Shown: positions 30,672 through 55,144 of the stretch, one piece after another
Layout: the number at the start of each line of letters is the position of its first letter
How positions within the stretch are numbered: the stretch's first letter is position 1
Origin: Pachyseris speciosa
Taxonomy: Eukaryota; Cnidaria; Anthozoa; Scleractinia; Pachyseridae
Assembly (NCBI GenBank): GCA_016490735.1
Contig: JAEMWC010000449.1
Span: forward strand, 286,001-350,000
Direction: 5' to 3'
Length of the DNA stretch: 64,000 bases
Notes under the pieces: generated by a model
The model's database searches: none
Told to the model about the DNA's origin: nothing
Seen by the model: the letters and a program-made list of their open reading frames with translations, nothing else
Program-made: the position numbers and the translations under genes

Positions 30672-30677
30672 AGCCAA
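30672..30677. repeat. Target site duplication, left (AGCCAA)
   Basis: Identical to 55139-55144. Collapsing the two copies restores an open LINE endonuclease frame across the site (see the finding on the nested insertion). Confidence 0.95.
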
Positions 30678-31015
30678 AGTAGTATAAGAGTTGGGTGAAC
30701 TAGCACATTTACATTTGATCTTAAATTGAATTTAAAATTAAATTTAAAATTCAATTTAAAATTCAATTTTAAACAATTTTCAAAACAATTTGGAAAACTA
30801 TATGTTTTTTTATTGATCTATTTGCGGCATATTGCTATATTTACCGAGAAACGGTCATTTTCAATAGTTTTAGCAATAAAGGGTATTAATCAACAGTATT
30901 CACCGAGTAACGTTTAAAAACAATACTTATTACCCAATTAACATTTTCGATATCATTTTAAACGCACTTTCTAATTTTATTTTCTATTTTCATAATATAG
31001 ATGAAGATACTTAAA
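30678..31015 (+). repeat. Maverick left terminal inverted repeat
   Basis: About 338 bp, matching 54802-55138 in inverse orientation with only scattered mismatches. It contains iterated TTTAAAATT blocks near the outer edge (30720-30770), then an AT-rich promoter-like stretch ending TTTTCATAATATAG. The match runs 15 bases into the first gene, so the TIR carries its own start codon. Confidence 0.95.
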
Positions 31016-31828
31016 AATAAAATGTGTAGTAATAGTATACAGATGAAATATAATATAGAAATTGTTGAAGAAAATAATTGTGACGAAGAAATGCATGAAT
31101 ATTTATTTGAAATAGAAAATTATATAACATGTCCATTTTGCGATCAGAAGATAGGAGAACATAGTGTTAAAAAAGAAGAACTATGTTGTGATAAACAAGA
31201 ACTTATCAATTATGGAGCAATTGTTTGTAAGAACTGTGGTATAGTTCAAGGCTATCAAAATTTTGTTGAATATGTTGATTTCCATAAAAATAAGTTTAAA
31301 ATTAGAAGAAAATCAGTTTATTTTCGCGAGTATTATATAATGGAAAAGATAACTAATCTTTCTTTCAAATATAGAAAACAAATATACTTTAATGATGAAA
31401 ACAAGGTATTACGAATTTTTAAGGAAATAGATAAAATAATGCCGTTATTAAATAAGGATCGAAAAAGAATGATAAATATTGATTTCATTCTGAAAAAAAT
31501 ATTCACTATGATGAAATTGGATATTGGTGATAATATTGTAATCACAAAATCCAAGAAAACATTATTAGATTATAAAAATTATTGGCAAAAAATATTATCA
31601 CTGATTGGAGACGATATTAATTTAATTATTTCGGAATCTCAACAATACTTATCATACTTTTGGGAAAACTTGTCGATTATTGGGCTGTTGTCAGTTATAA
31701 AATCATCAGTGTTTGTCATTGTAGTTTGCATATGGTTTGAATCATATTCTCCACTTCTTAATGCATTCTTGATGGAATTAAAATATGTTGATAAGTTTGA
31801 AATGCATAATAACATTGTTGAATCTTAA
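31001..31828 (+). CDS. VLTF3-like zinc-ribbon transcription factor (putative)
   Basis: 275 codons. A zinc-ribbon signature spans residues 44-80: CPFCDQK, CC-DKQ, then VCKNCGIVQGY. It is followed by KIRRKSVYFREYYIMEKI and a helical stretch with DRKRMINIDFILKKIFTM and ITKSKKTLLDYKNYWQKI. That order (ribbon, Lys/Arg-Tyr-Phe helix, helical core) is what Polinton and NCLDV VLTF3-like late transcription factors show. A role in late gene transcription is inferred. The last ~65 residues are hydrophobic, overlap an antisense gene and may follow a missed stop or frame change near LIGDDIN. It starts in the left TIR, mirrored by the polymerase start in the right TIR. No stop breaks it. Confidence 0.6.
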   Translation: MKILKNKMCSNSIQMKYNIEIVEENNCDEEMHEYLFEIENYITCPFCDQKIGEHSVKKEELCCDKQELINYGAIVCKNCGIVQGYQNFVEYVDFHKNKFKIRRKSVYFREYYIMEKITNLSFKYRKQIYFNDENKVLRIFKEIDKIMPLLNKDRKRMINIDFILKKIFTMMKLDIGDNIVITKSKKTLLDYKNYWQKILSLIGDDINLIISESQQYLSYFWENLSIIGLLSVIKSSVFVIVVCIWFESYSPLLNAFLMELKYVDKFEMHNNIVES

Positions 31829-32063
31829 GGTCCAAATTTTTGTGTTTCATCCATCCTTGTAATAAAAGTGCTCCCGTTGAAACAGCTATTATTGCTATAC
31901 CACCTGAAGCTATACTACCAACTAAACCGCCTGTTGCAAAAAAAATGGCAGTCACCTTCTGCCAGTGCGTTCTCAGCAGAATTATAATCTGAGATCGACT
32001 CGCGCTTTTGCCGCGCCTGTCTGTAAGACAAACAGATTCAGAGACAGCTTTATTATTCGCCAT
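31758..32063 (-). CDS. Small membrane protein of the Maverick
   Basis: 101 residues. A polar N-terminus leads to two adjacent hydrophobic segments rich in Gly/Ala (IFFATGGLVGSIASGGIAII, then AVSTGALLLQGW), followed by a charged tail with KHKNLDLKIQQCYYAFQTY. This is a conserved-looking short protein of cnidarian Polintons, function unknown; a virion or host-membrane role is only a guess. A TCTA sequence lies ~11 bases before the ATG. Its 3' end overlaps the convergent zinc-ribbon gene by 71 bases. Confidence 0.6.
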   Translation of the reverse strand: MANNKAVSESVCLTDRRGKSASRSQIIILLRTHWQKVTAIFFATGGLVGSIASGGIAIIAVSTGALLLQGWMKHKNLDLKIQQCYYAFQTYQHILIPSRMH

Positions 32064-53800: not shown

Positions 53801-54816
53801 AACACATGTTATCGTCATTCTTGATATTTATTAATCCTTTCATAGGATTTTGTAGTTCTTTAGGTAATTTGATGTAAGATGAACCAGTTATTGGTGCATA
53901 AATGTTAATATTTAAATAATGGTTCTCAACTGATTTAATTACCCACCCAGATCCTTCAGATGTCCAGATATTTATTCTATTCATTATTGTTTCCTGTGAT
54001 GCATACAAACCAACTGGAATTTGTGTTTTATTGATTATTGTTTCAGGATTGCTGTTGAAATAAGCGGTCTTAATGATTTGAGCATTATCTCCAATTTTTT
54101 TGAATGTTACTTTTAGTATTTCAATGAATTTCAAACCTTTAATTTTTTCAAGTAATTTCTCAATGTATAATTTTAATGCAATTATGGTTGATAACAATTG
54201 TTTTAATGAATCATTGCTTTTTATATTGATTTCATATGATTTGGAATAACCTTTCAGAGCTTTGTCTTTTTGCTCTATTTTAGTTCTTGGTTTAGGAACT
54301 GGTTTTTGAACCATTTTTTTAGTTCTTGGTTGTGCTACTGGTTTATCCCTAAATTCTATTGGAGGTGGAGATTTTCATAATCTTTTACCATTTGTTTTAC
54401 ACTCTTGCGAGGTTTAGGAATTGGTCTCTCAATTTGTTTTTTCTTTCTCGGAGCTGGAATTGGTTTTTGCTTTTTGATGTCATCAGCGAGACTCACTAAT
54501 TGCTTCATCTCATTGACATCCATTTGGCTTAAGCTTGTCAATATTTTTTTGAATAAACTGTTTCATTTTCCATCTTATTATTAGTGTGGATAATTTTTTT
54601 ATCAAGACCGAGAACCATCTGGCGTAACTCAGTCTTATTTTCATTTTGATTTTGACAATTAACCTTATTATTTTCATTTTTCATATTTTTCATTCTGTAC
54701 ATATTATATAAGTGTTTTGTCTTTAAGTCATTTTGACTTTGGCCTTTTCCAAGGACCTGGGATCCTACAATTTTTCCCATATTATTACATAGTGTTATTT
54801 CTTTAAGTGTCTTCAT
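50823..54816 (-). pseudogene. Protein-primed family B DNA polymerase (pPolB), multiply broken
   Basis: Starts in the right TIR (MKTLKEITLCNNMG) and spans ~1330 codons. There is a Pro/Lys-rich leader (PIPAPRKKKQIERPIPKPRK), then IKLPKELQNPMKGLIN and LDYSGIEFPV. The exonuclease region has YADFKAITE and FHNLRGYDSHF. A zinc/HNH-like insertion reads CHICDKKYTDTDVRARDHCH. The polymerase region has motif A YLDANNLYGWAMSQYLP, motif B near 51565 (NNSVFGKTMEN in a shifted frame) and motif C LLFTDTDSMTYE. Frame changes lie near 54540, 54360, 52615, 52390, 51600 and 51525, with in-frame stops at about 52325 and 52026. In ExoI the usual Glu after Asp-Phe is Lys (codon 53280-53282). It would replicate linear DNA by protein priming in an intact element. 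Confidence 0.9.
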
Positions 54817-55138
54817 CTATATTATAAAAATAGAAAATAAAATTAGAAAGTGCGTTTAAAATGATATCGAAAATGTTAATTGGGTAATAAGTATTGTTTT
54901 TAAACGTTACTCGGTGAATACTGTTGATTAAAACCATTTATTGCTAAAACTATTGAAAATGACCGTTTCTCGGTAAATATAGCAATATGCCGCAAATAGA
55001 TCAATAAAAAACATATAGTTTTCCAAACTGTTTTGAAAATTGTTTAAAATTGAATTTTAAATTGAATTTTAAATTTAATTTTAAAGTCAATTTAAAATCA
55101 AATGTAAATGTGCTAGTTCACCCAACTCTTATACTACT
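54802..55138 (-). repeat. Maverick right terminal inverted repeat
   Basis: Inverse match to 30678-31015, from AGTAGTATAAGAG at the outer edge through the iterated TTTAAAATT blocks to the ATGAAGACACTTAAA at the start of the polymerase gene. Confidence 0.95.
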
Positions 55139-55144
55139 AGCCAA
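55139..55144. repeat. Target site duplication, right (AGCCAA)
   Basis: Identical to 30672-30677; part of the interrupted LINE endonuclease codons. Confidence 0.95.

What the first reader, a model, noticed from the sequence alone, without database searches (positions are those of the whole stretch)
30672..55144. Precisely delimited 24.5-kb polintovirus-like Maverick nested in a LINE
Seen: inverted termini starting AGTAGTATAAGAG, a 6-bp duplication AGCCAA on both sides, and a near-complete Polinton gene set between them. Collapsing the duplication joins two minus-strand LINE pieces (55145 onward and 30671 downward) into one open endonuclease frame with its LDY-box codons intact. That is independent proof of the insertion point. 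Known: Mavericks make 6-bp duplications and carry capsid genes.
Basis: partly seen in the sequence, partly recalled or inferred. Interest (0 to 1): 0.9.

Follow-up and report, generated by a model that had tools for sequence, protein, structure and literature searches.

The report
Broken Polinton from a thriving family
A broken copy of a virus-like jumping element (a Polinton) sits inside another jumping element in what is likely an animal genome, and about a hundred related sites in the same genome still have an uninterrupted frame for what is likely the capsid gene, so the family was likely active recently.

Summary
The insertion is real and exactly delimited: inverted ends of 357/359 bp (96% alike) starting AGTAGT, a 6-bp AGCCAA duplication, and one LINE on both sides. 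Of 39 other genomic places of that LINE, 35 align across the joined site. It is a Polinton/Maverick, but not intact: three later insertions (about 4.7 of 24.5 kb) hit the ATPase gene, the integrase gene and the fibre region; polymerase, major-capsid and protease frames carry stops or frameshifts. Penton-like, fibre and BRO-N genes are open. The LINE copy is itself decayed; the frame across the join is open for only about 60 codons.

The wider result is the family. Of 150 major-capsid matches listed in this genome (a capped list that includes the window), 100 lie in stop-free frames of at least 415 aa. Capsid genes show dN/dS near 0.1, and three of seven other elements have inverted-end stretches 99.6-100% identical. 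In five other fibre copies read, the last third is conserved (dS 0.12-0.63) while the front is mostly near synonymous saturation, so the fibre looks mosaic. I read it as a new member of a known kind, from a well-preserved family whose fibre would fit an attachment role.

The parts
30672..30677 (.). left copy of the 6-bp target duplication AGCCAA
55139..55144 (.). right copy of AGCCAA
30678..31034 (+). left inverted end, starts AGTAGT
   Evidence: 96.1% over 360 columns
54780..55138 (-). right inverted end, ends ACTACT
31001..31828 (+). 275-aa open frame, cysteine pairs; no confident family
   Evidence: (zinc-ribbon models at E 0.43-2.1 only)
33182..33911 (-). second fibre-like gene, frame-broken
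   Evidence: 66-base match at 88% to the fibre gene
34299..36248 (.). interspersed repeat inserted beside the fibre gene; limits approximate
   Evidence: other copies within the window
36239..38905 (-). open 888-aa fibre-like gene
39039..39329 (-). A32-type packaging ATPase, 3' piece
   Evidence: PF04665 1.5e-6, profile 91-154
39302..40450 (.). inserted element with its own inverted ends, 9-bp duplication AAACGGGAC at 39293-39301 and 40451-40459, helicase fragment
40446..40736 (-). A32-type packaging ATPase, 5' piece
   Evidence: PF04665 6.4e-6, profile 9-57
41583..42365 (+). penton-like (minor capsid) gene, open; name by recall
   Evidence: no Pfam or PDB match
42671..43960 (+). major capsid gene, interrupted by one in-frame stop; name largely by recall
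   Evidence: 4 of 33 aligned members match PF21738 weakly, best 0.017
45054..45602 (+). adenain-like protease, interrupted by an in-frame stop
   Evidence: Peptidase_C5 E 0.094
46829..47635 (+). integrase core
   Evidence: PF00665 2.1e-11
47604..48827 (+). reverse-transcriptase frame of a retroelement inserted in the integrase gene; Penelope-like by recall
   Evidence: PF00078 9.9e-4, below its curated cut-off
49117..49428 (+). chromodomain end of the integrase
   Evidence: PF00385 6.1e-8
49442..50293 (+). BRO-N gene with a possible VRR_NUC part, open
   Evidence: PF02498 3.3e-25, PF08774 0.014
50823..54374 (-). type B DNA polymerase in pieces lying in three frames
   Evidence: (PF03175 0.015)
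55145..56644 (-). LINE, part right of the element (extends at least this far)
30055..30671 (-). LINE, part left of the element, with a private insert of about 141 bp at 30454-30594

Best explanation
A Polinton/Maverick of 24,461 bp with 96%-identical inverted ends lies inside the endonuclease gene of a LINE, flanked by a 6-bp duplication, and it likely arrived as a linear DNA copy pasted in by its own retrovirus-type integrase. Inferred cycle: the protein-primed polymerase copies the element from its inverted ends, capsid proteins, protease and A32 ATPase build and fill a particle, and the integrase inserts the DNA with a 6-bp stagger. This copy then decayed: three other elements landed in it and most core frames acquired stops or frameshifts, so it likely cannot move on its own. 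The same genome carries many relatives with open capsid and polymerase frames, so the family likely stayed active until recently. The fibre-like protein, which would project from the particle, is mosaic between copies, which fits exchange of attachment modules.
For: Ends and duplication. Empty site in 35 of 39 LINE places. Gene set: integrase core and chromodomain, A32 ATPase, BRO-N; polymerase and protease weak by Pfam; capsid and penton families by relatives. Family in own genome: 147 penton, 150 major-capsid and 116 polymerase matches listed, of which 127 have no stop, 100 lie in stop-free frames of 415 aa or more, and 32 in stop-free frames of 1,100 aa or more (the window is one row in each). 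dN/dS medians 0.116 and 0.092. Inverted-end stretches of seven other elements 91.1-100% identical. Fibre: residues 601-880 dS 0.12-0.63, residues 81-240 dS 0.47 to saturated.
Against: No expression, particle or mobility data. No relative was confirmed in the viral contig collection. Lists are capped and favour copies close to the query, and the assembly may hold both alleles of some sites. The window copy itself is distant from every capsid copy compared (nearest dS 0.60 of 29). The fibre mosaic rests on five copies, and one listed copy (C813) matches the window's front at 88%.
Confidence: 0.88

Rival explanations
1. The family moves only inside cells, as a self-copying transposon, with no infectious particle; capsid genes are kept for an intracellular packaging step or by hitch-hiking.
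For: No particle evidence here; no relative confirmed in five viral-contig scans; the copies read lie in assembled genome contigs.
Against: Capsid dN/dS of about 0.1 between copies and a mosaic fibre-like gene are easier to understand with a particle that meets cells.
Confidence: 0.35
2. The fibre mosaic comes from gene conversion between integrated copies, or from repeat-number shifts and alignment, not from exchange between co-infecting viruses.
For: Residues 521-600 show a likely repeat-register shift; many related copies share one genome, which gives templates for conversion.
Against: Residues 81-240 align over 157 codons in six of the ten pairs and 126 in the others' L108 comparisons, without large gaps, yet are near synonymous saturation in most pairs.
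Confidence: 0.4
3. The nesting is an assembly misjoin.
For: No reads could be examined.
Against: Matching inverted ends, an exact 6-bp duplication and LINE continuity across the join coincide at one base; a misjoin would not give these.
Confidence: 0.02

Closest known systems
Vertebrate Mavericks/Polintons (PMC8097293; passages and section 7 seen)
   Same: (AGT)2//(ACT)2 ends, 6-bp duplications, inverted repeats within 46-1,447 bp, length within the reported 12.7-24.6 kb, and polymerase, ATPase, integrase, protease and capsid genes.
   Different: Gene order differs (polymerase on the minus strand at the right end, ATPase and fibre on the minus strand at the left, capsid and integrase block on the plus strand between them). 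A fibre-like gene and a BRO-N gene are present; section 7 does not name these. That survey's largest count of intact elements in one genome is 38; here 100 sites have an open capsid frame, but whole-element intactness was not tested.
Adintoviruses (PMC11071296; passages seen)
   Same: Retrovirus-like integrase with a C-terminal chromodomain; capsid genes of the adenovirus-like kind by recall.
   Different: The N-terminal OTU-like domain that those passages use to define the polymerase was not found in the piece scanned.
Coral polinton of Stylophora (PMC11071308; passages and section 11 seen)
   Same: An animal polinton with a type B polymerase.
   Different: There the terminal-protein part is a separate gene and an OTU-type domain is fused to the polymerase; no such arrangement was established here.
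Phage tail fibres (PHROGs)
   Same: The fibre's K-x-Y-V-D repeat blocks match phage tail-fibre profiles down to 1.7e-22, and a head-decoration profile at 1e-23.
   Different: Best stretches are short (24 to about 65 residues); the whole protein has no PDB match below E 0.6.

Membership tests
Polinton/Maverick | long inverted ends starting AG | tested here: met
   AGTAGT/ACTACT as in PMC8097293
Polinton/Maverick | 6-bp target duplication | tested here: met
   LINE paralogues carry it once, 6 of 7 as AGCCAA and L007 as GGCCAA
Polinton/Maverick | retrovirus-type integrase | tested here: met
   PF00665 2.1e-11 and PF00385 6.1e-8; split by a later insertion
Polinton/Maverick | A32-type packaging ATPase | tested here: met
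   two PF04665 pieces; split by a later insertion
Polinton/Maverick | protein-primed type B polymerase | tested here: inconclusive
   PF03175 only 0.015; motifs by recall; 116 relatives listed in own genome, 32 in stop-free frames of 1,100 aa or more
Polinton/Maverick | double jelly-roll major capsid and penton | tested here: inconclusive
   4 of 33 relatives match PF21738 weakly; no match for penton; structure prediction not available
Polinton/Maverick | adenain-like protease | tested here: inconclusive
   PF00770 E 0.094
Adintovirus | polymerase with N-terminal OTU-like domain | tested here: inconclusive
   piece 53667-54374 gave no such Pfam match, but the gene is broken
Infectious virus | particles that carry the genome between cells | not testable with these tools
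   needs host material

The most novel reading that the evidence does not exclude
This genome houses a living swarm of endogenous Polinton viruses, with capsids kept under strong selection, very recent insertions, and a fibre whose front attachment module is swapped between lineages while its last third stays fixed; module swapping of this kind would be an evolutionary signature that Polintons make particles which bind cells.
Probability: 0.35. Interest if true: 0.85.

Novelty: new member of a known kind. Interest (0 to 1): 0.55.

Why it matters
Whether animal Polintons still have an extracellular stage is an open question. A genome with about a hundred sites with an open capsid frame, near-identical inverted ends in some copies and a mosaic fibre gives concrete places to test it: look for protected Polinton DNA and capsid peptides in this host. 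The window copy is a worked example of how such an element lands, with the empty site shown directly, and then decays under nested insertions.

Tried and rejected
Assembly misjoin as the source of the nesting: rejected on the coincidence of ends, duplication and LINE continuity. Relatives in the viral contig collection: five scans, none confirmed. Solved structures: the integrase matched retroviral integrases; fibre, major-capsid profile, polymerase piece, reverse transcriptase, 31001 frame and penton profile gave nothing convincing. The 13-bp partial tandem beside the left duplication was considered as part of the target site; paralogues lack it, so it is a local change in this LINE copy. Naming the host: not possible; a rhodopsin-type receptor gene at 58364-59254 (PF00001 1.9e-19) points to an animal. 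Seven other paired elements were read at their inverted ends, but the first stretches did not reach the outermost bases; one was extended and shows AGTAGT ends with CACACA on both sides, weak evidence because it lies in a CA run; the other six were not tested. One search was an orientation error in my script and is replaced. I found no report of fibre module exchange, or of a comparable capsid-open family in an animal genome, in the listings of searches, plus passages of four papers (PMC8097293, PMC11071308, PMC11071296, PMC10328495); that is a limited search of open-licence papers.

Full report
WHAT WAS CLAIMED.

BOUNDARIES. The inverted ends run 30678-31034 and 54780-55138 and align over 360 columns at 96.1% (12 substitutions and 4 gap columns in a global alignment). 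The element starts AGTAGT and ends ACTACT. AGCCAA flanks both sides exactly. The published vertebrate Maverick pattern is (AGT)2//(ACT)2 ends, 6-bp duplications, inverted repeats of 46-1,447 bp and intact lengths of 12.7-24.6 kb (PMC8097293, passages and section 7). The element fits it.

EMPTY SITE. The window lies in G000, contig C449, an unnamed 984-Mb assembly. The LINE flank right of the element has 40 listed matches there, one of them the window itself. With the flanks joined and one AGCCAA kept, 7 of 7 first-fetched paralogues align across the join. Over the 39 other places, 35 span it with at least 20 bases on each side: 29 at 81-94% identity and 6 at 68-73%. L019, L027, L028 and L037 do not (rows L009-L011 repeat L004-L006 and were left out of the count; L042/L043 overlap L038/L039). 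The join falls inside RLD|YWL, and the 501-aa frame of paralogue L005 matches PF03372 at 9.1e-17. The window's own LINE copy is decayed: across the join the frame is open for about 60 codons only, and a private insert of about 141 bp lies at 30454-30594. In 717 gap-free columns the window LINE has 16 private substitutions (2.2%). The inverted ends differ by about 3.4% in substitutions, about 1.7% per arm. That is consistent with the Polinton landing after the LINE, but gives no absolute date.

GENES AND DAMAGE. Minus strand from the right end: type B polymerase, 54374 to 50823, in pieces lying in three frames (PF03175 only 0.015). Plus strand: penton-like protein, open (41583-42365); major capsid, interrupted by an in-frame stop (42671-43960); protease, likewise (45054-45602, Peptidase_C5 0.094); integrase core and chromodomain (PF00665 2.1e-11, PF00385 6.1e-8), separated by a segment with a reverse-transcriptase frame; BRO-N protein, open (3.3e-25). 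Minus strand, left half: A32 ATPase in two pieces (6.4e-6 and 1.5e-6) split by a 1.15-kb element with its own inverted ends and a 9-bp duplication; an open 888-aa fibre-like gene; an interspersed repeat also found elsewhere in the window; and a broken second fibre-like gene. Taking off the three later insertions leaves about 19.8 kb (a sum; two of the insert limits are approximate).

THE FAMILY. The penton query gave 147 listed matches in the same genome (3,693 first-look candidates), each at 85% identity or more, 127 without a stop (counted by reading). The first major-capsid piece gave 150 (3,539 candidates): 100 lie in stop-free frames of at least 415 aa, 14 contain a stop in the matched part, 36 are shorter without one; the window's own copy is among the 36. 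A polymerase piece gave 116 (3,236 candidates): 32 in stop-free frames of at least 1,100 aa, 12 with a stop. The lists are capped and favour copies close to the query, and an assembly of 2,368 contigs may hold both alleles of some sites. For comparison, the vertebrate survey reports at most 38 intact elements in one genome, and a genome with 280 copies that all seemed defective (PMC8097293 passages). Whole-element intactness was not tested here.

SELECTION AND RECENCY. Nei-Gojobori dN/dS between copies has median 0.116 for the major-capsid piece (30 loci with the window, 424 of 435 pairs with dS above 0.02) and 0.092 for the penton (20 loci with the window, 185 of 190 pairs); codons with stops or gaps were skipped. 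Variants seen in one copy only are less constrained (N/S per site 0.33 and 0.29) than shared ones (0.13 and 0.11), as expected if selection acts on source lineages and relaxes after insertion. The eight closest capsid pairs, all at dS 0.007 or less, involve five copies on five contigs; their flanks were not compared, so alleles are not excluded. Inverted-end stretches (202-261 bases) of seven other paired elements are 100, 99.6, 99.6, 98.9, 98.5, 96.6 and 91.1% identical. The window copy is a distant member: its nearest compared copy is at dS 0.60 (capsid, of 29) and 0.42 (penton, of 19).

THE FIBRE. The 886 residues scanned match phage tail-fibre profiles over short repeat blocks and hold eight K-x-Y-[VLT]-[DE] units. 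Residues about 62-266 resemble residues about 592-800 (24% identity, E 5.5e-11, composition correction off), so the protein likely has two related globular regions joined by repeats. In the genome (51 of 6,003 candidates scored, 98 match rows) rows that cover the back of the protein match at 71-85%, while separate rows for the front match at 40-61%; rows covering only the first 68 residues reach 59-76%. The exceptions are C813, which matches residues 1-618 at 88%, and C111, 111-884 at 71%. Five copies were read (L108-L112; L109 gave no front part). Residues 601-880: dS 0.12-0.63, dN 0.02-0.08 over ten non-window and window pairs shown plus five more (15 pairs). Residues 81-240: dS 0.47 to saturated, dN 0.13-0.64 (10 pairs). 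The pair L111/L112 is close in both parts (0.47 front, 0.35 back) and sets the low end. L109 and L110 are at dS 0.12 at the back but 1.24 in residues 361-520. Third-position identity of the window copy against L110 and L112 falls from 60-86% behind residue 600 to 33-46% in residues 1-240. Synonymous sites change along with the protein, so selection alone does not easily explain it; segments of different age were likely joined. Whether this happened between co-infecting viruses or between integrated copies is open. Repeat-number differences likely distort residues 520-600. Of 120 database relatives compared, 104 cover the front region, 120 the middle and 110 the back. P0123 (fibre) and P0346 (capsid) both list a longest contig of 23,264 bp, which suggests, without proving it, that the pair also travels together elsewhere.

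MECHANISM AND VERDICT. Shown: ends, duplication, empty site, gene content, damage, a lower bound on family size, constraint, and a fibre mosaic in the copies read. Inferred: integrase-mediated insertion of a linear copy, particle formation, an attachment role for the fibre. The window element is an ordinary decayed Polinton; the family around it is unusual enough to deserve follow-up.

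Noticed in passing
window 39302-40450: 1.15-kb element with about 149-bp inverted ends and a 9-bp duplication, carrying a DEAD/RecQ-like helicase fragment (PF00270 4e-5), inserted in the ATPase gene. A genome search with it did not complete.
   Followed up: partly
window 34299-36248, 638-2519, 6358-7917, 60988-62650: Related interspersed repeats of about 2 kb, about 77-91% alike, one of them inside the Polinton.
   Followed up: no
window 30649-30673: Partial 13-bp tandem right beside the left AGCCAA, where seven LINE paralogues have a different, 6-base longer stretch; it may be a repair scar or a chance change.
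   Followed up: partly
G000 C91:1143886-1158319: Five fibre-like frames (992-1,016 aa) in a row at an exact 2,992-bp spacing: gene amplification or an assembly effect.
   Followed up: no
G000 C507:40858-41910, C703:258642-259694, C512:266745-267503: Polymerase matches inside stop-free frames of 5,156 and 3,579 aa, and a penton match inside one of 2,777 aa.
   Followed up: no
G000 C2019 and C1178: Pairs of capsid and penton matches with the same scores on one contig, about 42.6 and 13.4 kb apart: local duplications or assembly effects.
   Followed up: no
window 29030-30069: A second, plus-strand LINE-like stretch with its own RLDY motif abuts the left end of the minus-strand LINE.
   Followed up: no
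window 58364-59254: Open frame (297 aa scanned) for a rhodopsin-type seven-transmembrane receptor (PF00001 1.9e-19).
   Followed up: no
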